Below, piece by piece: positions 39,780 to 59,002 of a DNA stretch of 64,000 bases. Source of the stretch: Margaritispora aquatica (Eukaryota > Ascomycota > Leotiomycetes > Helotiales > Discinellaceae); assembly GCA_007644065.1 (NCBI GenBank), contig VJWN01000007.1:1054001-1118000 (forward strand). Reading direction: 5' to 3'. Made by a program: the position numbers and the translations under genes. The notes under the pieces are model-generated. The model did no database searches. It saw nothing but the letters and a program-made list of their open reading frames with translations, and was not told the origin of the DNA. The stretch's first letter is position 1; every line of letters begins with the position of its first letter.

Positions 39780-40737
39780 CTACATTGCCATACGCATGCC
39801 GCCATTGGCGGACACAACCTGTCCCGTGCACCAAACACTATCTTCAGAGCATAGCATACCAACAATGCCAGCGATCTCGTGTGGGTAAGCTGGTCTACCA
39901 CCGACAAAACTCGCGTCACGAAGAAGCTCAACATCATCGATCCCATCTCGTACTGCAGCCATCGGACTTGTCGATGTCCATGGTTTCAAGCCACCCTTGT
40001 GCTCAAGTGGCATATTATCCCACATGTCAGTTTTGACTGGCCCAGGATTAATGGCATTGCAGGTGCAGCGTTCCGAAAGCTCTCGAGCCCAAGTTCTTGT
40101 CATTGATTCCAATGCAGCTTTAGTGCCACCATACACAGACTGCCCCATGAAACCTTGGCTCGAGGATATGGAAGATAGGTTGATGACTCGACCGCTTCTG
40201 TCTGTAGGTAAATATGGTAGAACAGCTTTCATCAAAAGAAGCGGACCTAGAACGTTGATTCTGTACATCCACTCGAAATCCTCGATGTTTATGTTTTCGA
40301 TTGTTGCGTTGCTTGCGACTCCAGCATTATTGACGACAATATCAATTTGGAAAGCACCATCTTCTTCAGAAGCCAACTCCTTGTGGGCGGCCTGAACAAG
40401 GAGCTCTGCTCCAGTGCTACTGCCAACGTCTGCTTTGATAGTCAGGCAGCGTACGAAATGCTGACTTGCAATTTCTTTACCCAACAGCTCAGTTTGTGTC
40501 GCCGAGCTTTCGGATGTGTAATTCAGAAGGAGTGAAGCTCCTTTCGAACCTAGATTTCGAGCAATAGCAGCTCCAATACCTGTGAAGTATCAGCATTTGT
40601 GTAGGGAGGTACCCAGGAATATGAGTATCGTGTATCATCATACCTCGCGAAGCTCCAGTGACGAGCGCAAGCTTGCCCTCAAGTGCTCTGGCCACTAAGG
40701 GCTTCTCAACCCGCATCGAACTGCCAAAAACGGTCAT
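39780..40737 (-). CDS. Short-chain dehydrogenase/reductase (SDR), cluster member A
   Basis: Exons 40737-40644 and 40579-39780 (64-nt intron) give 297 residues. The NAD(P) site is GKLALVTGASRGIGAAIA, split by the intron within the glycine motif. NNAGV, LSSISS and the catalytic YGGTK follow in normal spacing, then INPGPVKTDM. Classical SDRs oxidise or reduce alcohol groups on sugars, polyols, sterols or aromatics; substrate is not determined by these motifs. It starts the run of genes from 39.8 to 59.0 kb and is divergent to SDR B. The C-terminal ANGGMRMAM is slightly unlike the usual DGG. No targeting signal is visible, so it is probably cytosolic. Confidence 0.9.
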
Positions 40738-41601
40738 GTTTAAGCAATTTATGTATAAGCTAACCTATCGAACTGAACTTCAAGAGATCATAGGTATCGG
40801 CATGAATATACAACGGAAAATCCGACATAACAAAGTATTCTCCCCTCGAGTCTCGCCATTTCCGCTCAGAGATCACTTGATATCTAAAATACTTGCTTCA
40901 TAAATCGGTGAACATCATTTATCGATGTTGAGCCAAATACAATCTTCATGATAGCTCGGTAATGTAGCAATACCAAATTGAGACTCCATAGGTTCGTCTC
41001 GGATTGTTGAAGCTCCCTCGACACGGTTTAAAGCTCCGTACCGGCTAAAGACTCTAGGATGGCATCACGGCCACTCAATGATATGAGAACATGGGATTCA
41101 TGCATTCCGTTCTTGCTGTTAGTGAAGTTCCGTATGGTCATACCGGCCGGCAGTTGAGGGTCTGGGGAAGCTTATGCCAAGCATCAATACACTAAGCCAA
41201 AAGTCATCTAGTTTGTTGCTCCAATGTCAACTCCACAACCTCCACCCCACCACAGCTCGTAACAAGTCTCGTCTCGAGGCCATCAGATGCGTTCGTCTCA
41301 AAGATGATTTCGTCAAGCGATGAGGCATGTGCGAATCTCTTGCCTCGTATCAAGCGTAACCAGCAGCCGCTGAGGGGAAAGTCTAAACGCATGTTATGAC
41401 CAACCCTTGAGTAGGTAGAATAGGCCTACGGTAGGTATTTACCTGAGTGTATTTTGCTACGAAATACAAGTGGCTTCGACGATGTAATTACCTTTGACAA
41501 TTGTGCCACCTGAGCTAGAGGACTTACCCTACAATTACCATTACAGCATTTTTGGGGATACTGATACTACAGAAAGATAGAACCCTTCCGCCTACAACTC
41601 A
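40738..41601. promoter_or_regulatory. Shared divergent promoter of SDR A and SDR B
   Basis: It is an 864-bp gap between two divergently transcribed dehydrogenase genes. It contains CGGAAAATCCG at 40814-40824, a CGG-N5-CCG inverted half-site pair of the kind bound by Zn2Cys6 factors, and a CCGGCCGG palindrome near 41144. No gene is seen. Confidence 0.5.
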
Positions 41602-42539
41602 ATGGCACCTCCACGCTGGCGGATCTTACATGGATCGGTGGCAGCTATCACAGGTGGTACAACAGGAATCGGGCGTGCAATTGCCATAGAATATCTGCGA
41701 CAAGGTTGCAATGTTGCCATAAACCATCTCGGACTGCCACGCGACGAGAAGCACAAGGACAGCTTGTTTGAAGTGGCCGCTGCACTAAAAGCAGAGAAAG
41801 TCGAAGGAGAGGCAGAATCCAAGGCTGGAGATCTTCTCGAAGTTGTGGGAGACATTACAAATTCTGAGACTGGAACTATACTTGTGGAGAAGACAATAGA
41901 GAGATGGGGCAAGCTCGATATATTCGTTGCAAATGCTGGTGTTTTTCAACCTGCAGACTTTCTAACGCAAGTGCTCACTCCGGCATGAAAAATATATTCC
42001 AGTCTAACACGTTTACTTAGTCTTGACCACGAACTCTTCGATCGAACGGTCAAAATAAACCTCAATGGCACATTCTACACATGTCAGGCAGCAGCGAGAC
42101 AGATGGTCAAGCAAGGCCGCGGTGGATCTATAATAGTTATATCTTCAATAAGTGCCCTGCTTGGAGGTGGTCTACAGACACATTATACACCAACGAAGGC
42201 CGGTGTCTTGTCAATGGTACAGTCTATGGCAATCTCGTTAGGAAAAGAGAACATCAGGTGCAATGCCATCCTGCCAGGAACAATCAAGGTTCGTCACTAT
42301 ATCACTAGAATGCCTCAGACACCTGTATTGACTTGGACACATAGACACAACTCAGCGAGGATGATATGAAGAACGATGTCAAACGCAATTATCTAGAGAC
42401 TCGAATCCCTATGGGTCGTGTTGGAGATCCTGAAGATATTGCTGGTCCAGCGTTATTTTTGGCAAGCCCTCACTTAAGCCCATATTGTAACGGGAGTCAA
42501 ATTCTTGCAGATGGTGGAATGTTCGTTCATCTACAATGA
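41602..42539 (+). CDS. Short-chain dehydrogenase/reductase (SDR), cluster member B
   Basis: Exons 41602-41966, 42021-42288 and 42345-42539 give 275 residues. The first intron must be GC-AG (GCAAGT donor): the nearby GT donor leads to a stop, whereas the GC donor gives the continuous family text ADFLTLDHELFDRTVKINLNGTF. The cofactor motif is ITGGTTGIGRAIA, followed by VANAGVF, ISSISA and YTPTK as the active site, then LPGTIK and a normal C-terminus with GDPEDIAGPALFLASP and ILADGGMFVH. This resembles glucose- or rhamnose-1-dehydrogenase-like SDRs, but that assignment is inference. It is co-oriented with the Zn2Cys6 gene 316 bp downstream. Confidence 0.9.
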
Positions 42540-42855
42540 ACGGCTGTTGATCTTCACCTAAATGTGCCCTTAGTTTTGTTTCTGGAAACCTTTGGAAAGC
42601 TCGATGATATCGACTTTGTTGTGAAACATGTTTTGATGTCTGATTCCGTCCCGAGCCAAAAATCCGAGCCCAAACGCACGTCCGAACAAGCTCAATAGGA
42701 TTGAACTTTGTTGATGATCTTGAAAGCCAAATGACATGACAGTGACTCTGCCTTCCAACGCTTCTGGAAGCCTAAAGTCTAATATTTCATACAAAATCCC
42801 CATTTACCCGAATTTCTGATTTTTCCAACCTGAACAACTACATTTCATATTGAAA
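42540..42855. other. Intergenic region upstream of the Zn2Cys6 gene
   Basis: No gene is visible. It contains the SDR B 3' end and the likely promoter of the transcription factor. Confidence 0.5.
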
Positions 42856-45680
42856 ATGACGATGACCCCAGAGTAAGTCCCACTTCTCCACCAGCTTGGC
42901 AGCTATTCCGCATTCCGTTAAAAATCCTAAAAGGTGGGGTATTTAAAGTCTATCTTGGCTGACTTGATCATTTGAGCAGGACACTCAATCAGCAGCAACG
43001 ACAAGATCAGTACCAGGGCCTCCAACAATTCAATGAATTTATACCGAGGACCCCATCAACCTACGCCACTTCTCCTTCTTCTGTCTGCTCACCTCTTTCT
43101 TTAACTGTTAACATGGGCGATGACGAAGGAGTTGTTCCACGAAAGCCTAGAAATCGCCAGTCGCGAGGTAGGGGTCTGAGAAAAACAACAGGATGGCAAG
43201 TCGCCCCTCATTTCTTGCCTCATAATATGCATCTCTAGAAATTGGATGACTGCACCAATAGTCTGCAACACAAGTCTTCAATTCTCAATACTTGCAGTTT
43301 GATCATGTCCTGACTGCGGTGGGCGCTTCAGAAGCGAATGATTTTGCTTGATTTCGATACTTGGACAGCACCAGATATTTTGGATTTTATGTGTCTTTCT
43401 TGCGTGTCTTCTGGAAGAGCTCATACATTACCTACCTGTCTTATGCATGACTGACAGATCCATAGCATCACGTGTAGACGGAGGCATGTAAAATGTGATG
43501 AATTCAAACCGTAAGCCTCAAAATCTCCAGATGCACGAACTTCGCTTCTTGTATCTCTACATGTCAAAATCTCTTATGGCGAGCCTCTTTGGGTACTTCG
43601 AACTAAACGATATTGGTTTGTGATTACTGAAATGATATTTACAAACACAGTCACTGCCAAAGATGTGTGAAGGGGAATCAAACCTGCATATATGCAGACC
43701 CGAACCGACCTGAGAGGCCCTCCAAGGTGGAGGATCGAACAACTACCGCTCCAGTCTCAGAACACAGGACTTCTATAACCTCGACCACTAATTGGTCAAG
43801 CTCACCAGACAACGTAAGAAGGATCTCACATCCTGCCTCTGAGATAGGGTTTGGAGTCTCAGCTATGACTCCAGGTCAACCCCAATCAATAGCACAAAGA
43901 ACGGGATCTCTGGGAGATAAGTCATTGAACCAACCGACGATAGCCCCCGAGCCAGCGAACCAACAAGTCATGTCGCCTGAAATGTCTACATACGCGGCAA
44001 CACATTTTTCTCTTGGAAGTAATGACAGTATCGTTCCCAGATCAATTAGCTCGCAGCCGACATTCAATGTTGCGATTTCAAGATGGTTTGACATGCTTGT
44101 CGGCGACAACCCTAATGCGACACTCGACAACGGAGACTCTAATTTTGAGATTGGAATAAGCGAGTTTGGCAATCCAGAGACTCCTAAAGATCCAGATTTG
44201 AACGGTATCCCATATATGGGCGTTAGTCGCACGTACAGCGCTGCGGGCGGCATTGACATTCTTGCGGCATCTCCTTCGTCGTCAAGTCCACAATTGATTG
44301 AGCGCAGTGCACCTGGTCCGGATCGCCTTGCGATTACAGAGAAAATGCGTTGGCAGGCTCCTGATACCATTCAGTTGTTGCCGTATGAACAGTTCATTTT
44401 CAGAAATTTCGTTCAAAGGATCAGTTTATGGGTAGCGATGTCTCTCCACGGGTAGGCGCTTGTGCTGATATCATTCAGATTGACTTGTTCGATCCTACTC
44501 GCAGTTTCTCCACCTTTGTTCCTCACTTAGCGGTGAGTGTTTAGTTTAATTCCCATCTTGTTAAAGGTGCTTACGAAACTCGTAGATGCGCAATATTGGT
44601 CTCATGAAAGCAATTCTAGCACTCTCAGCACGGCATATCTCACTTAACCCGAGTATTGCAGGCGAGCAGGCTCACGACCGAAACGATGCTCTACAGTATT
44701 ACAATGAAACTCTGCATTACCTGTCAAAGGCGATGCAGTATGACACCTACAAAACCAGTCTAGAACTCCTTGCCACAGCATTGATTGTATCAACTTACGA
44801 AATGCTCGACGGATCTGGAAAAGACTGGGAGAGACACCTTCAGGGCGTGTTCTGGATACAGCGCTCGCAAGTAATACATGGTGACTCGAAAGGTCTTAAA
44901 CAAGCAGTGTGGTGGGCTTGGCTGTGCCAAGATGTGTGGGCTGCTTTCCGTGAAAAGAGGAAAACCTTCACATTTTGGAAGCCAACGCGAACGTTTAGCG
45001 ACATGAACCCATTTGAGCTCGCAGCACGCTCTGTCTATGTGATTGCGAAAGTAGTCAATTATTGCTCGCGTGAGGAGAATGATGGAAGCGATCATCCTTC
45101 TCGAATCGAGAGAGCAGATCAGCTACAGGCTATGCTAGATGAATGGCAGCAATATCTAACAGCGGAGTTTGACTCGCTACCTTTCGAGTCTGATAATCCT
45201 CGGCTCGATATTTTTGAACCTATCTGGATTCACCCCCCTCCATTCGGTATGTGCACTCCCAAAACTAGTAGCCTTTTACTGACATGAGATAGCGGTTGCT
45301 ATACAACTTCACTACTCGGCTCGTTTACTCCTGCTACTCAATAGGCCATCAAGAGGTGGGTTTGGGGGCTACCTAGAGCAAAGCAGGTCAATTTCGAAAT
45401 ATGTCAACACGATTTGTGGGATTGCGATGACATTGTCCGACACCGCATCAGCTGTCATGAACTCACAGTGCCTGTTCATCGGTAGGTGTTGATATGTTTC
45501 TCACATCGCGGAGCTGATGCTTACTACTTTGTAGCAGGAATGTGTATCCAAGATTATAGACAGCGAGAAGTTGTTATCGATCTGATCAACAAATGCCGTC
45601 AGCAATCTGGTTGGCCAGTGGTCTCGCTAAGCGATGAGCTGCGAGCTTTCTGGCAAACGGAGAGTACTGGCAATGGATAG
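42856..45680 (+). CDS. Zn2Cys6 fungal transcription factor, likely cluster regulator
   Basis: Eight exons, 42856-42872, 42980-43195, 43466-43510, 43651-44431, 44479-44532, 44586-45246, 45293-45481 and 45535-45680, join in frame to 702 residues. The binuclear cluster is complete: Cys at about 78, 81, 88, 95, 98 and 105 in CITCRRRHVKCDEFKPHCQRC. The first Cys is built across an intron that must start with GC (TG|GCAAGT) and is 270 nt long; the second joint, P93, is also spliced. A linker follows, then a fungal-type regulatory domain with FVQRISLW, DPTRSFSTFVPHLAMRN, KAILALSARH, LQGVFWIQRSQ and AVAIQLHYSARLLLLLNRP. Such factors bind CGG half-sites and are often tuned by a pathway metabolite. Its place inside the set of catabolic genes suggests it controls them. 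Confidence 0.92.
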
Positions 45681-46272
45681 TACCAGAAATCACCAGCGTC
45701 GTCTCTATACATCCTATCGATAGCAAAGGGTTCCATTGGATTATGCTATTGGGGGTTTTCCCGGCCCAGATCTCGACACATTCGATGTCGAAAACTGCGA
45801 CACCGACAACAAATCGATCGCATGAACAATTTCCGGACCACGTTAAATTATATCTTGGTTTGTTTTTGCTCTAGCATTGCAATTGGATGAATCCTTACAT
45901 GTGTACACAGACTTTTCCTGTTTGTGTCCCTGCCAGCATGTGGGTCTTGAAAAAAACTACACCATGCCTACCCTCGATCTGACGGACCTTGAGCGATTTG
46001 CTGTCGCCTTACCAACATCAAGATATTTGCGTCGTACTTGATGATTTAAGAATCATAATCTCACCCTAGAAACTTAGAAGGTTGTCGATATATCAAACAG
46101 TTTACTCCAAAGCTGATCCTCCAGTTCTGTCACTAGACCAATACTGAAAGCAATTTCGATGGGAGAAGTCTTGCACTTTACAACCGCTTCCCAGCTAAAC
46201 TAAAGATCCATTAAAGACTTGGGATTTTGAACGAGGTATTTATATGAGTATATACACAAATAAGATCTGCCA
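45681..46272. other. Convergent intergenic region
   Basis: It lies between the stops of the Zn2Cys6 gene and the aldolase gene. No gene is seen. Confidence 0.5.
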
Positions 46273-47205
46273 TCAAGCTTTTCCTGCTGAACCGCATATT
46301 TCCATCCACTCTATTGTCTGTTTCTTGACCTTTTCGACGCCCTGCTCCATCAGCTTTGTTTGTGGAATATTCCCAGCAAAAGCCTTTAGATGCTTGTGGT
46401 AATCTTCCAGCACCAATCTATTTACATTGATCTTCGACACGCCTTCCGCTACGCACTTTCTCATCAAATCTGGCTTGAACCCATTTGTTCCGTGCAACGC
46501 TATCCGTACTTTTCCTTTGGAGTGGGCTCGAATATGCCTAAGTCTTTAACATGTCTGTCAGCAAGTGTTTTTAAGTCCTCTATCAATGTTTCCGCACCTC
46601 TCGAAATCCAAATTTGGTTCAGCATGAGCATATGGATTCTCCCCATGCATATTACCGATCGCAGGAGCCAATGCATCGACTCCTGTTTCCACAAATTCGC
46701 TCACTTCCTCCATTGTGGTCATACTGCCCTCCAAACCTTCAGTATCCATCACCCCATCCTCGCCTCCCTCAATCCTGCCCGGCTCAGCTTCAGTCGCTAC
46801 ACCTCGACTGTGGCAAAACTCCACTAGTGCCTTTGTCTTCGCCAAATTCTCCTCCTTCTCATAATGACTCATGTCAACCATGATGCTGTCGAATGGCAAC
46901 GTCTCAGCAGCCAACTTTATCATCTCTTCATCTTGCGCATGGTCGAGATGTATTGCAACAGGGACAGAGGCTCGTGAGGCCGCATCAGCTGCCGTGCGGA
47001 TGAGAAGACCCGACGAGAAAGTGATGGCCCAAGGGAAGAATTGGATGATCAGTGGTGAGCGACAGGCTTCTGCTGCGGCTATCATGCCTAGGATGTGTTC
47101 GATGTTGTATGCCACGGTAGCGAGAACGCCATACTTTCCCTCCTCTGCAGCACGAAGGATCTGTATGCTCTTGTTTGTTGATTTCCAATCTGTTGAGGGC
47201 GTCAT
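46273..47205 (-). CDS. Class II (Zn-dependent) aldolase, ketose-bisphosphate aldolase family
   Basis: Exons 47205-46598 and 46537-46273 (60-nt intron) give 290 residues, the length of GatY/KbaY-type aldolases. The catalytic and metal-binding positions are present: Asp88-His89 in HLDHAQD, Glu near 139-141 in ATEAEPG, His187 in APAIGNMHG and His218 in RIALHGTNG, then SKINVN. The loop GTNG replaces the usual GGSG/GGTG that binds substrate phosphate, so the substrate may differ from fructose or tagatose bisphosphate. The enzyme would split a ketose (phosphate) or a keto-acid by retro-aldol reaction in the cytosol. It is unlikely to be the housekeeping FBA1, which is longer. Its neighbours suggest the cleavage step of the cluster pathway. 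Confidence 0.88.
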
Positions 47206-48215
47206 GATTGCGAATTTCGAGGAATCTTGAATCTTGAACTGTCTGTAATCCGGCCTTCACTTTGATACTGCTTAGTATATCTTTCTTCGATTCTCAGAAG
47301 GATGGCTTACGATGCATATGCTAATCACGAGACGAGACAATCAAAAGCAGGCTCTTGAGGACATCAAATTTCTTCGTGACGTACGTTGCTCAGCCCTATG
47401 CCTTCGTAACGAAGTCATCTAATTTGGTTCCAATATTCTACGCTGCTTCATGGGGATAATTCCACCAAAGAATAATCAAAATCCACCTTGGCGACACTCT
47501 ACCTCGCTTCGAGGCCTCCTCGAGCTGTCCCCGTGGCGAGCCTCCACACAACACTTCGTCCCGTGTCCACACACGATTGCGGGGCACATCATCCCGAAAG
47601 ATGGAGAAGCTGGGGACGGCACCAAACGCATCATCTTTCTGGTAATGCTTAGCAGGATGAACAATCTACACATCCACGACATTACCTGCAGCAAGATCTC
47701 CCTTCGTTGAGCAAGAGCAGGTTTTCTATGCGCTTACCTCGATAGAACCCCATCGAACACGACATCGAACATGCTTTCTTGCCCTGAGTCATGGCGCTTG
47801 TGATTTGCGGGGTCAGCCATGCCCAGGACACTAGCAACCAGTTCTGCCTCTCCCAGTATGGAGAAGATGGGGAGCTGGGAGAGCCGACTTGGCTGTGCAA
47901 CCAAAAAAAAAATGGCGACGGCTTGCAGGTGCTCTTGACATCGGCTTTCACTTCAGTGATGCTATTAGTCGTGGTGGTCAAGATGGTAGGCTTTATACCT
48001 GGTAGTAGTCAACGAAAATAAATTTTATATAAACAGCGAGGTAACCTTAAGATGACCTGATTCCTCTTTTGTTTCTAATCGTGCAGATACTTTCTTCTGG
48101 AAGGTTGTCAAAAGGTTTCTTTGTATTTGGCAGTTTTCCGTTCTCGAGATCATCCTCCTCTTATCTTCCCTCAAATCTTTCACAGTTATAATTGAAAATA
48201 TCGGAAAACGTCAAA
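47206..48215. promoter_or_regulatory. Divergent region between the aldolase and transporter genes
   Basis: It is a 1-kb gap between two genes transcribed away from each other, so it should contain both promoters. Open frames inside it have no family features. A run of nine A lies near 47902. Confidence 0.5.
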
Positions 48216-50306
48216 ATGGTGGGTGCAGGTAACGCCAACATGCTTGGTGTCACGGCACAAATGCGCTCAGAAATGGGTAGCTCTGGAGTGAAGGGCTTAT
48301 GGAAAAACAAAAAAGTGTTCTTCATTTCCATGTTCGCCTCGTAAGTCAACTGGTCTCCTCTTTTCATGGTATATCTTTAAGTGAAAAATCATTTGCTAAC
48401 TCATATACTGCAGATTTGGCGGTCTTCTGTATGGCTATCAACAAGGTGTACTAGGCCAAGCAGTTGTCATGCGCTCTTTCAAGCAGGACTTTCCAAGTAT
48501 CGATCGCAGTGCGTCTGCACTTGGCTGGCTCACATCTATCCTTCAGCTCGGAGGTTGGCTAGGCTCGCTGTCTGCTGGTGTCTTTGGTGAGGTGTTCTCA
48601 CGCAAACATACTATGTGGGCTGGATCTGCTTGGTGTGTTCTGGGCTCTTTCCTCGCAGCCGGCGCTCAAGGCACATCTTATCTATATGCTGGAAGATTCT
48701 TCACCGGTCTTGGTGTTGGTACTTTGTCCGCTATTGGGTAAGTTATCTTTTTGGGTTGGTGTTGAGACATGAATATTGATAATTGCTTTGCAGACCATTG
48801 TATAATGCCGAACTGGCACCACCCGAGATCAGAGGCTTCCTTATTGCGCTCCAACAATTAACAACTACAATTGGTATCATGCTGGCATACTGGTGTGCAG
48901 TGAGTATAAAAGGCACACTGAGATGAGATGAAGATGTACTAACGAATATCACAGTTCGGAAGTAACTACATTGGTGGAACTGGAGAGGGACAATCCGACA
49001 TGGCTTGGCGTCTCCCAATGATCATCCAAGGCATTCCAGCAGTCATCCTCTGCATCGGCCTCTTCTTTATGCCATTCTCCCCTCGCCTTCTAATGAACAA
49101 GGGCAAAGAATCTGAAGCTCTCAAAACACTCTCCTACCTCCGTAACCTGCCAGAAGACCACTACCTCGTGCAAGTCGAGTTTTTGGAGGTCAAGGCAGAT
49201 GCAGAATTCGAGCGAGCGATCTTTGATCGCCGCTTTCCCGGGTTGAGCAAAGCTGCTGGGAACAGTGTCTGGAGACGGGAGTTAGCTCAATATTCCAATA
49301 TCTTTCGCTCAAAGGATAATTTCAAGCGTGTTGCCCTTGCATCTCTTGTAATGTTTTTCCAACAATGGACTGGTATCGACTCTAGTATGTTATCTTTGCT
49401 CCAAAGCTCATAGAACCTCTAGCTAATCAGGAGATAGTCATCTACTACGCAGCAATCATCTTCCAGAATCTCGGGTTGACATCCAACACCACGTCACTTT
49501 TAGCCTCCGGAATCACAGGTGTCATCAATGTCGCAACTACGATTCCAGCCATTTACTACATCGACCGCATCGGTAGAAAACCGCTCATGATCTCAGGTTC
49601 AATTGGCATGTGTATTTGCGAAACAATCATCGGTGTTATTGTAGCGACTTGTGCCCATGACTGGTCGGCAAATGCAGCAGCTGGCTGGGCTGCTGTTGTG
49701 TTCGTCTGGATTTATATCATCAACTTCGCTTATTCTTGGGGTCCAGGAAGTTGGATCTTGATTGCCGAGTAAGTCTGCTTTAAGCTCCAGTCCTTTACCA
49801 TCCTTAAACTGTCGTTCGAGATTCAAGTGCAGTGTAATTTTTTTTAAGACAATGCGTCAAGTCGCATCACATTGAACCAATGCTCGAAGGTCATTGACTA
49901 AAGACTGTCTAGAATATTCCCATTGTCCATTCGTGCAAAAGGCACCTCTATCGGCGCATCAGCAAACTGGATGAACAACTTTATGATCGCGTTCTTCGTT
50001 CCTCCAATGCTTGATAAGCTTGGCTGGGGCACTTATATCTTCTTCGCAGTCTGGTCCGCGCTCGGTGGTGTATTTATCTACTTCTTCATCCCCGAGACCA
50101 AAGGCAAGACACTTGAGGAGATGGATCAAGTATTTGGCAGCCACACTGCTGCTGAAGAGCTAGAGGAGTTTGCGAGAGTTCAGGAGCGTGTTGGCTTGAC
50201 GGCATTGATCATGGGTCATCATGCTGGCAATTCGAACACGATGAGTTCAGAGACAGGGTCTATGGAGAAGGAAGGTATTGATGTTCAACATATCTCAAAG
50301 GTCTAA
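48216..50306 (+). CDS. MFS sugar-porter family transporter
   Basis: Six exons, 48216-48340, 48414-48737, 48794-48899, 48955-49384, 49438-49768 and 49913-50306, join in frame to 569 residues. Sugar-porter marks are FGGLLYGYQQGVLGQ in TM1, the glycine-rich RFFTGLGVGTLS, PLYNAELAPPEIRGFLIALQQL, FSPRLLMNKGKESEAL, QQWTGIDSIIYYA, YIDRIGRKPLMI and PETKGKTLEEMDQVF. About twelve spans are expected in the plasma membrane with proton-coupled uptake. Quinate, hexose, pentose and sugar-acid carriers share these motifs, so the substrate is not decided. Next to a lactonase, aldolase and SDRs it is the probable importer of the cluster substrate. Confidence 0.93.
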
Positions 50307-50834
50307 GGTATCTTTCACATCTCATATATCGTTTGAGTGTATTTATGCTATTGTTGTTTTTGGTAAAATCTTGGTAGTGAGCTGGCGTGGAGTAGGTAGA
50401 TGCTTGACTACTTTAGTTACCTTTAGTGTTACTTCGAATATCCTTTACGCTTCAATCAAGAATATTAAGAGCTCCTCATGATGTTTTCCCCAACATTGGC
50501 TTAAATTCGTGATTTTACCAGCAAGCTTTAATGCATGTCATGTGAGCAACCACATGACTATGACTAACTTCGCTTCCTTAAGGTAGTCTGACATCTCTTT
50601 CTGAAGATAAAAGTAGCTATAGAAGAACCCTTTAAAACATTAGTATCTACAGAAATCTCTCACTAGTCAAAAACAATGATGAAGATGCATTCGTCTCGAG
50701 TCATTGACGGTGGGGTCAGCTTCTCCTCACATGACCGTCTAAACAACCCCACCAATATCAGAATTCAAATAGTTGCAGGATCCCTCAGCTACAGAAGCAT
50801 CTAGTGCACTTCATCCGATATACGCTTTTAATCA
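50307..50834. promoter_or_regulatory. Promoter region of the lactonase gene
   Basis: No gene is visible. It contains the inverted repeat GTCATGTG-N6-CACATGAC at 50537-50558, whose arms hold CACATG, about 280 bp before the lactonase start. Confidence 0.45.
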
Positions 50835-51898
50835 ATGAATAAAAATATGATAACAGACGAAGCCTCGGCATTTCTGGCTCACGATGACCGCTTCCGGCAA
50901 CTCATTGGCTCGTCACCAACGATGGATTTGTTGCTAGAGCATGATGAGTACCCATTTGCTCATGAAGCTGGGGTGTTCCTCTCTGGTACAAATGAGCTCT
51001 TCATAACCAGTAACAGCTTTGTCAATTCCAATAACAAGCGATCAATCCACATCTCCAAGGTATCAATGGGAAATGGCATAGAGAGAGTGAAGCGAGAAGA
51101 AATACATTACCATGAGATACCCATGGCCAATGGAGGAGTGAATTACAAAGATGGAATACTGTTCTGTGCACAAGGGAACGAAACGCAGCCTAGTGGACTG
51201 TACTTTATGTCGCCAAATCCACCATACAAGAGCAAACTCTTGATTTCTTCCTTTTATGGCCGAGAATTCAACTCTACCAATGATGTTGTGATTCATTCCG
51301 ATGGCAGCATCTGGTTCACCGATCCAATTTACGGATTCGAGCAAGGTTATCGACCTAGACCTAGGCTACCAAACCAAGTTTACAGATACGATCCAGAAAG
51401 CAAAAGTATCAGAGCTATCGCTGATGGTTTTGGGAAACCAAATGGCATCTGCTTCTCGCCAGACGAGAGGATTGTGTATATTACAGACACGGATTGGATA
51501 CATGGCGATGGGAGTACAGATGAGACGAGAGTTTCAAGCATGTGAGTGTGCCTAAAGCATTGGTGGCATTGTGAAGGCTGACATGAATTAGATATGCTTT
51601 TGATATTGTGTATTACTCTGATAAGCCCTTCTTGACAAATAGGAGACTTTTTGCAATGGCAGCAAATGGCATTCCAGACGGCATCAAGTGCGACTTGAAT
51701 GGCAATGTTTATAGCGGGTGTGGAGACGGAGTTAATGTCTGGTCTCCTGGTGGTGATTTATTGGGAGTGATTGTTGTTGAAGGAGGGGTAGCAAATTTCT
51801 GTTTTGGCAAGGATGGCGTTGTATACATTTTGAACGAGCACAGATTATGGAAAGCGCAACTGGCGAAGTCAACGAAAGGAGCTCTGTTGGGAATTTGA
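50835..51898 (+). CDS. SMP-30/gluconolactonase-family lactonase
   Basis: Exons 50835-51541 and 51592-51898 (50-nt intron) give 337 residues. The beta-propeller metal site can be traced: Glu in FAHEAGVF, Asn in FNSTNDVVIHSDGSIWFTD and Asp in CFSPDERIVYITDTD. GFEQGYRPRPRLPNQVYRYDP is typical of fungal lactonases. There is no signal peptide, which points to a cytosolic enzyme that opens an aldono-lactone made by an SDR dehydrogenase. L-rhamnono-gamma-lactonase (LRA2) and gluconolactonase both belong here. Its presence beside four SDRs is the main sign that the cluster runs an oxidative sugar route. Confidence 0.92.
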
Positions 51899-52043
51899 AT
51901 TTAAATGGCTTGAATTCATTCACTGTATTTAGACGTGCTCGCGAAACGAAGAACCCCTCCACCATGTTCAAAGTCACAATACAAGTGATTATCAATAACA
52001 AACTCCATTTCATAACGCACACCATATCTTCAACCATTTAAAC

Positions 52044-53362
52044 TTAAATTAAAGTATACCCTCCATCGACTCGAAGATCTGCCAAAGATGTATCAATAAT
52101 GTTCAATTGGCTGTATATGTAGACTTACCTGAACCTGTAACATAATTTGAAGCATCTGAAAGCAAGAATGCAACACTGCCCATCAAATCTTGAGGCTGTC
52201 CCAGCCGGCCTTGTGGAACGAGAGAAGTCCATTGTTTTCTTAGATCAGGCTTCTCATCCAAGATTCGCTTCGTCCTGATAGCACCTACATTAGCGTTTTA
52301 CCTTCATTTAACATAACAAATGGCAGCGGACTCACAACTCTGTGACCATATACCCAGGACTTATACAATTGACTCTGATTCCGGCAGAAGCCCACTCAAC
52401 AGCCATTGATGAAGCTAGATGCCTGACGGCGGCTTTCGATGCGTTGTATGGAGCTTGAGGTTGTGGCACGTTGACAATGTTTCCAGACATGCTGCCGATG
52501 AATACCATGCTACCCGGACTTTTCCTCTCAGTCAAATGCTTTGCGACTGCAGTCGCAAAGAAGTAGGTCCCGTTCACATTGACTCCCCAAAGTTTGTTGA
52601 TTCGATCGACCGGATAGCTAATTGCGTCGTAATTTTCGCAAAATCCGGCGGAAGTTACCAGATTGTCGATTTTGCCATGAGTTTGGACGATTTCTGCAAC
52701 AGCTTCATCAACAGAGACATTGTCGGATACGTCTGCATAGTGAGCAGTGATTTTTGGAAGTCTATTGGATTAGCAGTGTTCCCTTCCATAGACCACTGGA
52801 CGAACCTAGACTCGTTCGGATTTTCGCGCTTGAAGTTCTCGAGCAATGCACCAGCTTGTCGCTGAGCTTCCGATTCTTCTTTGTGTCAATTGAGAAGCTC
52901 TAATTTTCGATGAGATAACTCACTATCCAAATCTACGATTGCAAGGTCGGCACCACTAATGATCAGTGCTTGCGACATCATCAGTCCGAGTCCGCGAGCA
53001 CCTCCAGTCACCACTCCGACCTTCCCTTCCAAAGAAAAGCTTGCCAGCGTCCTCTGTAAATGCATTCCTCCACGACCTTGAACAGGCCTGCTCTTTGGCA
53101 GCTCATCTTCTGGTGGATGTTCAACCTGTACACTTGCATCTGTTCGCGCGAGAGTGCCTTCATAATCTTCTTCGCCTTTCGAGTCTACCGGCGACTTGAA
53201 GTCGGCATATTTTCGAGATAGAATAGAGAATCTGCTGACGACAGTGAGGGACGCTAGAAAAGATGATGAGCTAATGCCTCGCTGTAGATGGTACATTTCC
53301 AACAGCTGAAGATGGCAGTGGCCACGAAGGATGAATTTACAGCAGCAAACAACACTCAGCAT
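52044..53362 (-). CDS. Short-chain dehydrogenase/reductase (polyol/sorbose type), cluster member C
   Basis: Five exons, 53362-52924, 52878-52806, 52761-52336, 52274-52129 and 52078-52044, join in frame to 372 residues. The acceptor at 52275 was chosen because it alone restores VTELTKRILDEKPDLRKQW. Cofactor motif is GKVGVVTGGARGLGLMM; then FIGSMSGNIV and the catalytic YNASK, then CISPGYM and VDGGYTLI. The segment ADFKSPVDSKGEEDYEGTLARTD before the domain is shared by fungal mitochondrial-looking sorbitol/arabinitol-dehydrogenase-like SDRs. Residues 1-50 are basic with almost no acid groups, and a second ATG at 53296 would also leave a presequence (MYHLQRGISSSSFLAS). It likely oxidises or reduces a ketose/polyol pair. 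Confidence 0.85.
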
Positions 53363-53429
53363 TTACCTTAACGCTCCCACATTATAGAAGTACCCCTCCT
53401 TTCCATGACTGGAAATCCTCCATCCTGAG

Positions 53430-53440
53430 CGGCTCAGCCG
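53430..53440. promoter_or_regulatory. CGG-N5-CCG site (CGGCTCAGCCG)
   Basis: It is an 11-bp palindrome of inverted CGG triplets spaced by five bases, the classic layout of a Zn2Cys6 dimer site. It overlaps a second palindrome, TGAGCGGCTCA, at 53426-53436. The same spacing occurs at 40814-40824 in the other divergent SDR promoter. Confidence 0.45.
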
Positions 53441-53445
53441 CAGCT

Positions 53446-53464
53446 TGAAGTCAAATTGACTTCA
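53446..53464. promoter_or_regulatory. 19-bp perfect palindrome
   Basis: TGAAGTCAA and TTGACTTCA flank a single A. It lies 84 bp upstream of the longest SDR C start, close enough to be a promoter or leader element. Confidence 0.45.
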
Positions 53465-54182
53465 CAAGGCTTCATACCAGTCGGCCATCTGCACATAATC
53501 ACGTTACACAGATATCAGGTCGCCATTCTAGAACTCTCAACAGCGGCAAGTCACAAGATGGACTCGAGACGATGTAAGACGATCCTAAAAGCTATCCAAT
53601 CAAGCCCCTTAGCGAGCTCGGCAAAATACCGAAGCGAGCCCCTGGTCGTGATTGGCCAAGCGCGGGCTATTTTTCGGGCTCGAGGATGACTTGCATTCAT
53701 TTCACCTGTCCAAGTTTGTCCTTTGGGGTTCATGCTCACATCAAACTCGAGACGATATCTAAGTTTTGTTTCATGGTGATGTTTATGGCAACACGCGACC
53801 CAATAACCCACCTCGACTCGAGGCGAATCTCATGTGGAAGATTCCCACACGATGAGATGGCCGATCTTTTTACTTTATGGAGCTTCTCTTCTGTGGTTGA
53901 TTGTATTTTTCTACCACGAAGCGAGCTGAGCTGAGTTATGGGCCGGATGAGGAAGTTCACCGACATTCTTTTCGCTATTGCCGACGTCTCCCACGGCCCA
54001 AGTGGGGATCAAAATCCGCTTCGAATTACTAAACGGTAAGCATAGCTACATATACGTGCTAGGGTTCTCCCTTGGTGTGGAAGCATATCTTTTCGTGCCT
54101 TCTGTTTAAGTTTGGATATTTAATGTACAATTAAGATATCTGGAAACTCACCGATCTGACTCCAACCAGGACTTAACTCAAC

Positions 54183-55121
54183 ATGGCACCTTCCGCAATT
54201 GATACCACTGTCCCGAAGATAGAGGAGGCCACAGCTCCACAGGTTCAAACACAAGTTCAACTAGCAGGAAAGATCATTGCCAGTATGTTTTCTGTTCTTT
54301 TCTGAAAATAAAACTGACAATTTGTCCTCAGTTACTGGGGCAAACCGAGGAATTGGTCTCGGCATTGCAGAATGCTGTCTGGCAAATGGCGCCTCAAAAG
54401 TCTACTCGATAGACATCACCGAGACAGGAGATGACTTCGCAGCAATCTCGAAGAGGTTTCCTAGCAAGATGTTTGGTGTACAGGCTGATGTCACCAAGGA
54501 GGATAGCGTTACCGCCGCTGTAGACAGGATCATTGAGGAGAGTGGCGCGTTACACGGAATGGTCGTGAATGCTGGTCGGACCAATCACAAATCTGCTCTT
54601 GACTTTACTCAGGCGGAGATTGAAGCTCTGTTCAATGTCAACGTATGAATCAATCTTCAATTGTTTTAACAGGATCACTGACAACATTCCAGCTTTTCGG
54701 TGCTTTTTATTGCGCGCGTGTTGCCGCTCGAGCATTCATCAAGCTCAATATCAAAGGCGCAATTGTTTTCACTGCTTCCATGGCCTCCTATAGACCCAAC
54801 AAGCGTGTTCCCTCTGCACCATACGGTGCCTCGAAGGCGGGTGTGCGAAACATGACACATACATTGGCCATGGAGTGGGCAAAGTATGGCATTAGAGTCA
54901 ACAGTGTATCGCCAGGTCTCGTTAACACAGCCATGACATACTGGGTGCCACAACAAGCAGATTGGGAGCAACAACTCAAGTACTATGGTGGCATGCCTAG
55001 GTTGGCTGAAGTTCAAGAGTTGGGTGGCGCGTATGTGTACTTGCTGAGTGATGCTGCGAGTTACACGACGAGTATTGATATCCCAGTTAATGGTGTTATT
55101 GGAAGTAAGTTCTCCAATTAA
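54183..55121 (+). CDS. Short-chain dehydrogenase/reductase (L-xylulose/sorbose reductase-like), cluster member D
   Basis: Exons 54183-54282, 54332-54642 and 54693-55121 give 279 residues. The cofactor site is IITGANRGIGLGIAE, joined across the first intron (KIIA|ITGANRG). VVNAGRTNHKSALDF, TASMAS, the catalytic YGASK and VSPGLVNTAM follow in order, ending SYTTSIDIPVNG. A perfect GTAAGT donor at 55105 could splice out 54 nt to an acceptor at 55158, changing the last residues to a short GIC end at 55166; either end is possible. The family includes NADP-linked ketose reductases and polyol dehydrogenases in the cytosol. It is divergent to SDR C. Confidence 0.88.
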
Positions 55122-55380
55122 GAGTCCTCTGAGTACCTAAAGCTAAAATCTTCGACAGTATGTTGAACAGACTTGAGTTGGACTCAGAACTAGCGTTTGA
55201 TTTTTGTTCCTCTTAGTCCACTCACATCGATACTCGGTGCATTTCTGAACGCAAATATAAAAACCTATTAACCTAAAAATGTCTGCTCTAGTTTTTATTT
55301 CATGTTCAATTTGACGGAAAGACGAGAGAGCTATTCTAATATACCCGCTCTTACCTTTAATTAAACTCACTTTTGCACAC

Positions 55381-55993
55381 ATGAAAAGACTCCTTCGTGG
55401 TCAATTTAATCTTCACAGTATGATTGGTACAGTCTACACATTGCTCTTGAACAAATGCCATAAGCAAGGTTTAAAACTCCAAGATGTCGAAGTGGTAAGT
55501 ATTATCGGATCAAGTTCAGCAATTGCTTACAAGCAGCTAGATTTTTAGAAAACGAATCACTTTCGAGGATATTGTCTACACTCTCTCACGCCCAATCCAA
55601 GTCGAGAAGCATGCCAACTTTCGTTTCGATCTTTACGTGCCATACACTGGCTTCGGCATCAAAGACTGTCATCTGTTAGGTGAGCACTTCGGCTGGCTTT
55701 TGGGTGCTAGCGTAGGCGAACCATCTGGAAGCGACTATTGGGAGATCATTGATGAGATTGAAATTGCGGTTACTGAGCAATATGATTTGGGAACCACTAG
55801 TGAACTTTTCTACGCTCTAAAGTGGAGTGACAAGATGGCAGTTGAATTCTTTGGGGCCGCTTTGGATAGTTTGTATGAGTGGAGTCACTATGGGCATTTG
55901 GAGGACGGCATAGAACCACCAAGAGCTTTTCGAATCGATCATCGCCCCCAGAGTCCACGGACAATCATCGATCTTGTGTTTACGAAGAACTAG
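55381..55993 (+). CDS. Hypothetical protein, unknown family
   Basis: Exons 55381-55494 and 55541-55993 (46-nt GTAAGT...TAG intron) give 188 residues, phase 0 on both sides. The text is protein-like: LLRGQFNLHSMIGTVYTLLL, RFDLYVPYTGFGIKDCHLLG, GEPSGSDYWEIIDEIEIAV and MAVEFFGAALDSLYEW. No motif is recognised. Just after its stop, another frame on the same strand (to 56211) reads EELVERAMVLNNRNPKHIIV and DEWSINRRLNAITGLSK, also protein-like, so the gene may be longer and broken, or spliced in a way I could not resolve. It lies between SDR D and the lyase. Confidence 0.5.
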
Positions 55994-56211
55994 TTGAAAG
56001 AGCAATGGTGCTGAACAACAGAAACCCAAAACACATAATAGTCTTATACCTTACTCCGCAATTATCTGATTACGTAGAGTGTTGGTTAGACGAGTGGAGC
56101 ATAAACCGCAGACTAAATGCGATCACAGGATTATCAAAGGCCGTCATCGAGTTGGCCGCCAAAGCCTACCTTGATAGAGCGAAATATAATAACAAGGAAG
56201 TTATCCACTGA

Positions 56212-57140
56212 TCCGATCTTGTATTTTCAGTAAGTGAAGAACGTCGAGTCAGTGGGAAAGACTCAGTAGTTCATTTTTATCCGGAAATCATGCTTAAGTT
56301 TCAAGTGAAGCTTAGCCAGAACTGTTTTTCAAGTCTTTTAAATTGTCGAGTTGAATCTGAGACATTGGATTTTCCATTATGATCTTTGAATGCCAATACA
56401 AATGCTTTCGCTTGAGTATGTGTCATTGCTCGAAGAAGACAAAGACTGTTTGTTGTGGTTCTTGGTACCAGCCTTGATTTTCGCTTGATTGTTGGGCCGA
56501 TTTTGTGTACAGATTCAAGAATGTTTAAGTACAACATTTTCTTGCACGATAATTCCTACCATTTTATTCGTGCGCTTCTCGCACTTAGTCTTCGCAAATG
56601 ATCTTGTTGCAAAGACTACAGCATAATTGTCGGATATTATTTGCTTGAATAGGCTAAAGTTGAATGAATTCGGAAGCATTCATCACGGTGGAAAGACTTC
56701 GGTAACAAAGTCCACTTTGAAGAAGCTTATCCTCTAGTTCTCCCTAATGAAGACGAATTCACAATCAACAGCCTTATAATGCGGGGTAATTAATATATTT
56801 CCCTACCAATCCGGAGATGCATTGCCGGAACGGGACCTTGAAGCGAAATCGCAGTACCGAGCAAGGGTCCCATTTCCACCAATAACTCGAATTTGAGCAT
56901 GAACATGTTGATAAATTTATTGATCAGATATAGCGGCTGTCTCCATGCGACGGAATACGGATGAAGTTGATCCATATCTGCCAGCTTGGCGTTGGCTTTA
57001 CCATGATACTAGGAGGGCTGTTAATGAAATTTGTCTTGGCTTCAATATGGTTAAAGAACTCAGCCCTCGCTCCTTGCGAAGTGTTGTGTGGTTGCTTCAA
57101 GTTCTTCTTCAATCACTTGTCAACTTGGGCATTTCACGAG
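56212..57140. other. Intergenic region upstream of the rhamnogalacturonan lyase gene
   Basis: No gene is visible. It is fairly AT-rich and should contain the lyase promoter; CGG triplets occur near 56948 and 56956 as a direct repeat. Confidence 0.4.
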
Positions 57141-59002
57141 ATGAAGTCTCTCTTATCCTTCCTTCTAGTGGCGTTGAGTCTTCCATACCTCGCATTTGCA
57201 GCTTGGGGTTGGACGGATGATGGGAGCAATTATGTGATCGGTGAGCATACTTATAAAGACTGAGAATGTGAAACACTTCCATGGCTAACTTAATTTAGAC
57301 ACTGGCTCTCTCCTGGTTTTCAAGGTTTCAAAGTCCAATGGTGATATCACATCGATGAAGTACAATGGCGTCGAGTACAATGGATACCAAGGGAAGAATT
57401 CTCAGGTCGAGAGTGGTTTAGGGACTTCGACCGTCTCAATTGTTTCGTATACCAGTAAGCTTCTGGACTCACTTCTTCTCCTCCCTTCTGACTTTCAAGG
57501 CCCGGCATACATCATCAAGGTCACTGTTAAATATGGTACCTTAATTCACACCTACATTGCTCGCTACGGAAACAATAATATCTACATGCTTACAAATAAG
57601 GCCGATGCTAGCGTAAGTTGTTCGAGGAACTACATGATACAGAGGGAGAACTGAAATATATTCTAGGTCACTGCTCTACGATACATTGTCCGCATTGTCC
57701 CCAACATTCTTCCCAAAGCCGCAATCGACTCGGATTACTACGATACTCCCAGCACCGCACTGGAATCTGGAGACATTACTCTCTCGACTACATACGGCTA
57801 TACGAAATCCAAACATTACCAAGGAAGCAACTATGGGCGAACCATCGATTACGACTACGTCGGCAAAGCGACTTCATCTGTTGGAATTTGGCTCATTCGT
57901 TCTAACCACGAGAAAGCATCTGGAGGACCGTTCTTCAGATCTTTAGTTCGTGGCTGTACCACCATCGCCGAGGACCTGTACGAGATTCTGTACTACAACA
58001 TGGGCACGATTGACCCGGAGAGATTCGGTCTGCAGGGTCCGTACGTGCTATCCTTCACCGACGGAAGTGCACCAAACAATGCCTTGTTCGCTCGAAAGGC
58101 TGATTGGAGTTGGATGGACACTCTTGGCATAACCGGTTGGGTCGCAGCCTCTGCTCGAGGAACTGTCGCCGGTGTTGGAATCGCGAACATGAAATCGGCA
58201 TACACCTATACTGCCGCTCTATCGAACTCTGCGGCACAATACTGGGGCACAGCTGCAGCGTCCACTGGTGTCTTCAGCATCACGAAGGTCATCCCAGGCA
58301 CTTACACTCTCTCAATCTACAAAGGCGAGTACGAAGTCTACTCCGCAAGCGTCGTGGTCACCGCAGGAGCAACTACGGCTCTCCACACTATCACCCCCGT
58401 CGATCCATCCGACGACGTAGCAATTTGGCGCATCACAGACTGGGACGGCACACCATCCGGCTTCACGAATTTCGACACCTCGCCTATGAAACCAACCTAC
58501 ATGCACCCGTCAGACACACGTCTTGCCTCCTGGTCGCCTCCAAACTACATTGTAGGCACTTCCTCGGCAGCCACAGCATTCCCGGGGTATATCTGGAAAT
58601 CAGTCAACAATGGCCACTTGATCTACTTCAAGCTCTCGGCTGCGCAGACCCTCCTCGCTCATACGGTTCGGATTGGTATTACGCAGGGATTTGCGGGTGG
58701 TAGACCTCAAATTAGCGTTAATGGCTGGACGAGTGCGGCTCCTGCTGCGAGCTCGCAAGCGTCTACGAGAAGTTTGACCGTGGGAACGGTAAGTTTCTTG
58801 ATGTTGTTGAGATGGTTTGGTTGGGATGCTGATTTTCTAATAGTACCGTGGAACGAACGCTATGTTCACGTATACCGTTCCGGCATCAGCTTTCTTGGCA
58901 GCAGGAAGCTATAACATTATGACTGTCAATGTCATCAGTGGGCAGACTGGAACGACATATTTGAGTCCGGGTATGTCGCTGGATTGCATTGACTTCCTGT
59001 GA
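57141..59002 (+). CDS. Rhamnogalacturonan endolyase (PL4), secreted
   Basis: Exons 57141-57240, 57299-57454, 57500-57612, 57667-58788 and 58844-59002 join in frame to 549 residues. A signal peptide (MKSLLSFLLVALSLPYLAFA) precedes AWGWTDDGSNYVIDTGSLLVFKV, the start of PL4 mature enzymes. The catalytic domain carries GRTIDYDYVGKA and IWLIRSNHEKASGGPFFRSL, then YYNMGTIDPERFGLQGPY. An FnIII-like middle domain (AARGTVAGV, GTYTLSIYKGEYEV) and a C-terminal carbohydrate-binding-like domain (DDVAIWRITDWDGTPSGF ... LSPGMSLDCIDFL) complete the three-domain layout. The enzyme cuts the rhamnose-galacturonic acid backbone of pectin RG-I by beta-elimination. Exact catalytic Lys and His were not assigned. 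It would feed the transporter and dehydrogenases next to it. Confidence 0.95.

What the first reader, a model, noticed from the sequence alone, without database searches (positions are those of the whole stretch)
39780..59002. Candidate undescribed oxidative sugar-catabolism cluster tied to pectin RG-I degradation
Over 19 kb the window holds four SDRs, an SMP-30 lactonase, a class II aldolase, a sugar-porter transporter, a Zn2Cys6 factor and a secreted rhamnogalacturonan lyase. Seen: gene identities and divergent pairing. Known: the fungal L-rhamnose (LRA) route uses an SDR dehydrogenase, a lactonase, a dehydratase and an aldolase, and clusters in some yeasts. Inferred: this set oxidises a sugar or deoxysugar to a lactone, opens it, then oxidises and cleaves it. 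No LRA3-type dehydratase and no kinase is visible, and the aldolase is class II, so the chemistry should differ from the known LRA pathway.
Basis: partly seen in the sequence, partly recalled or inferred. Interest (0 to 1): 0.8.

Follow-up and report, generated by a model that had tools for sequence, protein, structure and literature searches.

The report
Conserved fungal sugar-oxidation gene cluster
A mould carries a set of neighbouring genes, three of which also sit together in many other moulds, that probably oxidises a rhamnose-like sugar to an acid and splits it by a route not yet described; which sugar it uses is unknown.

Summary
The genes are real: four SDRs, a Zn2Cys6 factor, a class II (PF01116) aldolase, a sugar porter, an SMP-30 lactonase and a PL4 rhamnogalacturonan lyase. 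The ten models include no dehydratase or kinase.

B, aldolase D and lactonase F recur together in Pezizomycotina: within six locus tags, D-F in 12 of 14 genomes, D-B in 5 of 6, F-B in 4 of 7. B relatives found beside D or F fall in a clade apart from canonical LRA1. Three of five cluster promoters hold CTCGAGACGA and a fourth a near copy; the lyase promoter has none. So the core cluster is conserved and, in the papers searched, undescribed; the RG-I link rests on proximity.

Proposed route: aldose to lactone (B), aldonate (F), 2-ketoaldonate (SDR G or H, inferred), then hydroxypyruvate plus aldehyde (D, inferred). Substrate unknown. New variant of non-phosphorylating sugar catabolism.

The parts
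39780..40737 (-). A: SDR (exons 39780-40579, 40644-40737)
   Evidence: model; PF13561 158 bits
40738..41601 (.). A/B divergent promoter with CTCGAGACGA at 41269 (-) and CGAGACGA at 40994
41602..42539 (+). B: LRA1-type SDR, paralogue of L-rhamnose 1-dehydrogenase (exons 41602-41966, 42021-42288, 42345-42539)
   Evidence: model; NF053807 310.9 bits, cut-off 400; 62% to the C17 copy; tree
43113..45680 (+). C: Zn2Cys6 factor with Fungal_trans_2, 649 aa, 7 exons (start could be 42856)
   Evidence: model, partly spliced by hand; PF00172 and PF11951
46273..47205 (-). D: divergent class II aldolase (exons 46273-46537, 46598-47205)
   Evidence: model; PF01116 273.9 bits; 120 homologues aligned
47206..48215 (.). 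D/E divergent promoter with one-mismatch element CACGAGACGA at 47326
48216..50306 (+). E: sugar porter (Sugar_tr), 6 exons
   Evidence: model; PF00083 382.9 bits
50307..50834 (.). E-F intergenic region, CTCGAGACGA at 50691 (-)
50835..51898 (+). F: SMP-30 lactonase (exons 50835-51541, 51592-51898)
   Evidence: model; PF08450 91.7 bits; E44, N149, N203, D265 in 121 of 121 rows
52044..53296 (-). G: SDR with an N-terminal extension of about 85 aa, 5 exons
   Evidence: model; PF13561 178.8 bits, match starts at residue 100
53297..54182 (.). G/H divergent promoter, CTCGAGACGA at 53563 and 53746
54183..55166 (+). H: SDR, 4 exons
   Evidence: model; PF13561 178.1 bits
57141..59002 (+). J: secreted PL4 rhamnogalacturonan lyase; proximity only, membership of the cluster not supported
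   Evidence: model; PF09284 272.6 bits; no element upstream

Best explanation
A non-phosphorylating oxidative sugar-catabolism cluster with a conserved core of LRA1-type dehydrogenase (B), SMP-30 lactonase (F) and divergent class II aldolase (D), with a sugar porter (E), a Zn2Cys6 factor (C) and accessory SDRs (A, G, H) beside it in this genome. Shown by sequence: the gene families, the conserved neighbourhood of B, D and F, separateness from the canonical LRA locus, a shared promoter element. Inferred: E imports an aldose; B oxidises C1 to a lactone; F opens it to the aldonate; G or H oxidises C2; D binds the 2-ketoaldonate with the carboxylate where ketose bisphosphates carry phosphate and cleaves C3-C4 to hydroxypyruvate and an aldehyde; the remaining SDRs process the products; C regulates. 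The sugar is probably L-rhamnose-like because B is an LRA1 paralogue, but need not be L-rhamnose.
For: Co-location (typed from the printed top 120): D-F within six tags 12 of 14 and on one contig 22 of 25; D-B 5 of 6 and 10 of 16; F-B 4 of 7 and 10 of 19. B clade of 89 rows split from 33 canonical rows at support 100; rows found beside D or F are all in the B clade, and none of six canonical rows with a D or F of the same fungus in the lists shares its contig (read by eye). Residue 115 is Phe in 87 of 89 B-clade rows and Cys in 33 of 33 canonical rows. Aldolase: H86, D88, H89, E141, H187, H218 invariant, Arg or Lys at 243 in 121 of 121, where four displayed solved FBAs have Thr. A paralogous aldolase (50%) on C5 lies downstream of a D-erythronate dehydrogenase homologue; that enzyme type makes a 2-oxo acid (passage of PMC10580937). 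Promoter element.
Against: No substrate, induction or activity data. The C2 oxidation step has no gene shown to be part of the conserved core: A, C, E, G, H were not tested for conservation. Arg/Lys at 243 could bind phosphate as well as carboxylate, so the unphosphorylated substrate is not shown. B and D or F lie apart in several genomes (Pestalotiopsis fici, Dactylonectria, Conoideocrella, Penicillium psychrofluorescens, Aspergillus wentii and others). The element was picked after the fact; random real stretches reach the same statistic in 29 of 1000 and 9 of 2000 draws, and it is not enriched genome-wide (139 copies against 163 for the reversed control). It is missing upstream of C.
Confidence: 0.5

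Rival explanations
1. Second L-rhamnose entry module: B and F duplicate LRA1 and LRA2, the L-rhamnonate is dehydrated by the LRA3 on C17, and D serves as an alternative aldolase or another route.
For: B is 62% identical to the C17 LRA1 and matches NCBIfam Lra1 far better than any non-rhamnose model. No SMP-30 gene was seen in the 24 kb read around the C17 locus. The last step of L-rhamnose breakdown is unsettled in Neurospora (passages of PMC13158570).
Against: B clade is separate and has changed residue 115. The C17 region lacks the promoter element. The A. [quoted passage not shown] that it belongs to the B clade is inferred.
Confidence: 0.25
2. Phosphorylated variant: an unlinked kinase phosphorylates the keto acid or ketose before D cleaves it, as in the 2-OtnK/2-OtnC threonate route.
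For: 2-OtnC is an F_bP_aldolase-domain enzyme that works after a kinase (passages of PMC12540250). Arg/Lys at 243 would suit phosphate.
Against: No kinase among the ten models. The HGG[TS]G loop of 3q94, 7ncc and the own C10 enzyme reads HGTNG, and the Thr at 243 is lost.
Confidence: 0.15
3. Only D, F and B form a functional unit; A, C, E, G, H and J are passengers at this locus.
For: Only D, F and B were shown to co-locate elsewhere, and D and F are often directly adjacent there, without a transporter between them.
Against: Element copies lie in the A/B, E-F and G/H regions and a near copy in D/E; 0 of 500 shuffles reach three promoters with four copies, 13 of 500 reach three promoters.
Confidence: 0.1

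Closest known systems
Fungal non-phosphorylating L-rhamnose pathway (LRA1-4; LraA, LrlA, LrdA, LkaA; RhaR)
   Same: LRA1-type sugar dehydrogenase, a lactonase, an aldolase, a transporter and a Zn2Cys6 factor; no kinase
   Different: No dehydratase here, PF01116 instead of an LRA4-type aldolase, different type of factor (PF11951), paralogous dehydrogenase; a separate LRA1-LRA3 locus exists on C17
FUR1/FDH1 L-fucose system of Trichoderma reesei (abstract and passages of PMC12370193)
   Same: SDR sugar dehydrogenase regulated together with sugar release
   Different: Uses LGD1 dehydratase and LGA1 aldolase; FUR1 is compared there with XYR1 and is longer than 770 residues, C has 649
Bacterial and plant 2-OtnK/2-OtnC threonate route (passages of PMC12540250)
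   Same: Sugar acid oxidised to a 2-oxo acid, then a PF01116 enzyme
   Different: Has a kinase, four-carbon acids, and no sugar 1-dehydrogenase or lactonase
Class II fructose- and tagatose-bisphosphate aldolases
   Same: PF01116 fold, residues H86, D88, H89, E141, H187, H218 kept
   Different: Phosphate-site Thr replaced by Arg/Lys, loop HGTNG; 23% identical to the own C10 enzyme

Membership tests
Canonical LRA (L-rhamnose) cluster | LRA1 dehydrogenase | tested here: inconclusive
   B scores 310.9 against NF053807, cut-off 400; the C17 copy also misses the cut-off with 354.6; B lies in a separate clade
Canonical LRA (L-rhamnose) cluster | LRA2 lactonase orthologue | not tested
   F is SMP-30; no LRA2 sequence was at hand for comparison
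Canonical LRA (L-rhamnose) cluster | LRA3 L-rhamnonate dehydratase in the cluster | tested here: not met
   PF13378 places: five, none in the window; the C17 gene passes NF011968 with 495.1, cut-off 393
Canonical LRA (L-rhamnose) cluster | LRA4-type (HpcH/HpaI, PF03328) aldolase in the cluster | tested here: not met
   three places in the genome, none in the window; note that LRA4 is outside the cluster in most fungi (passage of PMC12028159)
Canonical LRA (L-rhamnose) cluster | RhaR-type factor next to the dehydratase | tested here: not met
   C is PF11951; the PF04082 gene divergent from LRA3 is on C17, called RhaR-like from its position only
FUR1 L-fucose system | FUR1/XYR1-type factor | tested here: inconclusive
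   C has 649 residues and PF11951; FUR1 is described with residues to 770; no direct sequence comparison was made
Class II fructose/tagatose-bisphosphate aldolase | PF01116 domain and catalytic residues | tested here: met
   273.9 bits, cut-off 25.5; residues invariant in 121 rows; their catalytic roles are recalled
Class II fructose/tagatose-bisphosphate aldolase | Curated FBA/TBA subfamily scores and phosphate-site Thr | tested here: not met
   best NCBIfam 185.2 against a cut-off of 343; Arg/Lys at 243
Any of these sugar pathways | Induction by and growth on a substrate; enzyme activities | not testable with these tools
   no expression or assay data for these genes

The most novel reading that the evidence does not exclude
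A widespread, undescribed fungal pathway in which an LRA1 paralogue and an SMP-30 lactonase turn an L-rhamnose-like sugar into its aldonate, an SDR oxidises it at C2, and a fungal subfamily of class II aldolase with a basic residue in place of the phosphate-site Thr cleaves the unphosphorylated 2-ketoaldonate to hydroxypyruvate and an aldehyde, without dehydratase or kinase.
Probability: 0.3. Interest if true: 0.75.

Novelty: new variant of a known kind. Interest (0 to 1): 0.6.

Why it matters
It offers a genomic context for the LraA paralogue (A. niger NRRL3_8837, A. nidulans AN7580) that a 2025 paper leaves without a function; that these belong to the B clade is inferred. The three core proteins are often annotated as gluconolactonase, fructose- or tagatose-bisphosphate aldolase and L-rhamnose or glucose 1-dehydrogenase (names), so fungal sugar-metabolism models may misassign them. 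If the aldolase cleaves 2-ketoaldonates, that would be an unusual class II aldolase activity. The three proteins are small and can be expressed and assayed in laboratory hosts, so the question is directly testable.

Tried and rejected
Rejected: LRA proper (no dehydratase or PF03328 aldolase in the window; LRA1-LRA3 on C17). An RG-I module (no element upstream of J; conservation not tested). Arg144 of the aldolase was first taken as special, but displayed ordinary FBAs also have Arg there, so it is not used. The FUR1 system is thought unlikely but was not compared by sequence.

Led nowhere: one scan of genome contigs with two aldolase patterns matched 58 stretches, none encoding a relative, so no bacterial operon could be used. 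Four paper searches aimed at such a cluster or chemistry listed 4, 0, 20 (15 shown) and 1 papers; titles and abstract starts showed no such cluster, and only three of them were looked at further, by passages (PMC12028159, PMC9781776, PMC10833574); PMC11537073 was opened for another reason. Searches served other questions. Most subscription papers are not held; the paper on lkaA (Chroumpi 2020) was seen only as a reference.

Genomes seen in one list only were not usable. Left out as different strains or ambiguous multi-strain clusters: Lasiodiplodia theobromae, Diplodia seriata, Penicillium salamii, P. canescens, Exophiala xenobiotica, E. dermatitidis, Botryosphaeria dothidea, Fusarium lateritium, F. 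solani. Only B-clade rows were used for B. For Cadophora gregata the nearer of two F copies was used; the other is far away. JGI DRAFT numbers were not treated as sequential except for A. crustosus. Two Fusarium decemcellulare assemblies count separately. Two pairs counted as different contigs (Penicillium crustosum D-F, Paecilomyces 18167 D-B) have adjacent tags. Several contigs are chromosome-sized, so same-contig counts are weaker than tag distances. The tree is a quick one, and canonical LraA of Sordariomycetes and Aspergillus was not identified among its rows.
Full report
What is there. The window is part of a 42.36 Mb genome in 49 contigs. Intron-bearing genes and the homologues show a fungus; the aldolase's nearest relatives are Helotiales (80% in Stipitochalara and Hyaloscypha), so the host is taken to belong there. 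A small splice-aware gene finder trained on long frames of the window gives ten models between 39780 and 59002, and Pfam identifies nine. In order: A SDR (-), B SDR (+), C Zn2Cys6/Fungal_trans_2 (+), D class II aldolase (-), E sugar porter (+), F SMP-30 lactonase (+), G SDR (-), H SDR (+), I orphan (+), J PL4 rhamnogalacturonan lyase (+). A/B, D/E and G/H are divergent pairs. Flanking models recognised by Pfam are an ATG22-like transporter and a methyltransferase.

One SDR is an LRA1 paralogue. B scores 310.9 bits against NCBIfam Lra1, and the second-best model (205.4) is also an L-rhamnose dehydrogenase. Its closest solved relative is the 7b81/7do5 group, listed only as an SDR; I recall it as a bacterial L-rhamnose dehydrogenase. 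A genome search with that family finds a better-scoring gene on C17. The 24 kb read there hold LRA1, an L-rhamnonate dehydratase (NF011968, 495.1 bits, cut-off 393) and, divergent from it, a Fungal_trans gene. Divergent lraC and rhaR are reported for A. nidulans (passages of PMC7532622), so that gene is called RhaR-like from its position. B and the C17 LRA1 are 62% identical. The fungus thus appears to have an ordinary L-rhamnose locus and, apart from it, this one.

The core is conserved. D and F lie within six tags in 12 of 14 genomes with sequential tags, mostly adjacent, and on one contig in 22 of 25. D and B: 5 of 6 and 10 of 16. F and B: 4 of 7 and 10 of 19. All three lie close in Annulohypoxylon (ABKA04_005827, 005828, 005830) and Sporothrix bragantina (001624, 001623, 001618). 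In Lachnellula occidentalis one contig of 10,296 bases carries D and B. Failures: Pestalotiopsis fici keeps D-F but has B elsewhere; Dactylonectria has all three on different contigs; Neopestalotiopsis has D and F 25 tags apart; Fusarium VM40 has D and F on different contigs; Aspergillus wentii and Cadophora DSE1049 have D and B apart; Conoideocrella, Penicillium psychrofluorescens, Aspergillus similis, A. oleicola, Xylariaceae FL0016 and Lipomyces have F and B apart; for Rutstroemia B lies on another listed contig. With random order about 0.1% of pairs would fall within six genes, assuming some 10,000 genes.

The B clade. A tree of 122 rows (quick IQ-TREE, SH-aLRT only, midpoint root) separates 33 rows that include the C17 copy from 89 rows that include B (support 100). 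Rows found beside D or F are all among the 89. Six rows of the canonical clade come from a fungus with a D or F in the lists (Cadophora gregata, Cadophora DSE1049, Cadophora MPI-SDFR-AT-0126, Lachnellula occidentalis, Phlyctema, Clarireedia); none shares the contig (read by eye). Phialocephala, Clarireedia, Lachnellula occidentalis and Cadophora DSE1049 have both types. Position 115, the second residue after the conserved NAG, is Phe in 87 of 89 B-clade rows and Cys in 33 of 33 canonical rows; the bacterial chain aligned has Cys. That this residue faces the substrate is inferred from the SDR fold. A 2025 paper reports a paralogue of A. niger LraA (NRRL3_8837; A. [quoted passage not shown] Aspergillus rows lie in the B clade, so these are probably the same thing; their sequences were not at hand. 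PMC5674754 prints the lraA deletion, which abolished growth on L-rhamnose, under NRRL3_08837. If that identifier is right it speaks for the duplicate-LRA rival; the 2025 paper gives NRRL3_1494 as LraA.

The aldolase and the lactonase. In 121 aligned sequences (D plus 120 homologues) H86, D88, H89, E141, H187 and H218 are invariant. The loop that reads HGGTG in 3q94 and 7ncc and HGGSG in the own C10 enzyme reads HGTNG (T220 in 120, N221 in 121, G222 in 114). Position 243 is Arg in 73 and Lys in 48; it is Thr in the four ordinary FBAs displayed and in C10. The nearest solved protein, 3pm6, labelled putative FBA, has Arg. A paralogue on C5 (50% identical, Glu at that place) lies directly downstream of a D-erythronate dehydrogenase homologue (NF043036, 302.4 bits, cut-off 325). 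DenD oxidises D-erythronate to 2-oxo-tetronate (passage of PMC10580937), and 2-OtnC of threonate catabolism is an F_bP_aldolase-domain enzyme that acts after a kinase (passages of PMC12540250). From this I infer that the D subfamily cleaves 2-oxo-aldonates: C1 carboxylate in place of CH2-phosphate, C2 ketone and C3 hydroxyl on the metal, C3-C4 cleaved to hydroxypyruvate and an aldehyde. A basic residue suits carboxylate but also phosphate, so the point is open. In F, residues E44, N149, N203 and D265, which I recall as SMP-30 metal ligands, are invariant in 121 rows.

Regulation. CTCGAGACGA occurs four times exactly in 64 kb, all in cluster promoters: 41269 (A/B), 50691 (E-F), 53563 and 53746 (G/H). 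With one mismatch allowed there are ten in the window, against 3.65 expected, 1 of 100 shuffles reaching ten; one of these lies in D/E at 47326, two more in G/H, three outside the cluster. It is absent upstream of C and J. The genome has 139 exact copies, 163 for the reversed control, so it is not enriched genome-wide; about 0.013 copies are expected in the 3.9 kb of the five promoters. It was picked after the fact from all 10-mers. Of 500 shuffles 13 had a 10-mer in three promoters and none in three promoters with four copies. Random real stretches reached that in 29 of 1000 draws and, with a repeat region left out and other loci added, 9 of 2000. The C17 LRA region lacks it.

Known or new. 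Four searches of the held papers listed nothing that describes such a cluster; subscription papers are mostly not held. The closest systems are the LRA pathway, the FUR1/FDH1 L-fucose system (outline, abstract and passages of PMC12370193) and the 2-OtnK/2-OtnC route. It works like a non-phosphorylating oxidative pathway but lacks a defining part of LRA and of the threonate route. The last step of L-rhamnose breakdown is unsettled in Neurospora (passages of PMC13158570), which keeps the duplicate-LRA rival alive.

Verdict. The genes are real; the B-D-F core is conserved and undescribed in what was searched; a shared promoter element gives moderate support for joint control of the wider set. The sugar, the C2-oxidising step and the aldolase reaction are inferred. 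The RG-I link rests on proximity alone.

Noticed in passing
G000:C5:907766-910212 (L050): A second aldolase of the D kind (50% identical, Glu at position 243) directly downstream of a D-erythronate dehydrogenase homologue.
   Followed up: partly
G000:C25:177006-184300 (L024): A DHDPS-type aldolase, an aldo-keto reductase fused in my model to an enolase-superfamily dehydratase, and a transcription-factor-like gene within about 7 kb: looks like another sugar-acid catabolic cluster; C33:130239-139980 holds a similar dehydratase with a transporter, a factor and an SDR.
   Followed up: no
41967-42020 and 43196-43465: Introns of B and C with GC-AG borders (GCAAGT donors) in the chosen models.
   Followed up: no
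52924-53296: SDR G carries an N-terminal extension of about 85 residues before the Rossmann domain, possibly a targeting sequence.
   Followed up: no
55381-55993: Orphan gene I, 188 residues, no Pfam hit.
   Followed up: no
6108-7398: Frame on the minus strand coding a repetitive Trp/Ser/Gly-rich protein; the region also produces spurious k-mer matches.
   Followed up: no
literature: PMC5674754 and PMC12028159: NRRL3_08837 is printed as the deleted lraA in the first and as a paralogue of LraA (NRRL3_1494) in the second.
   Followed up: partly
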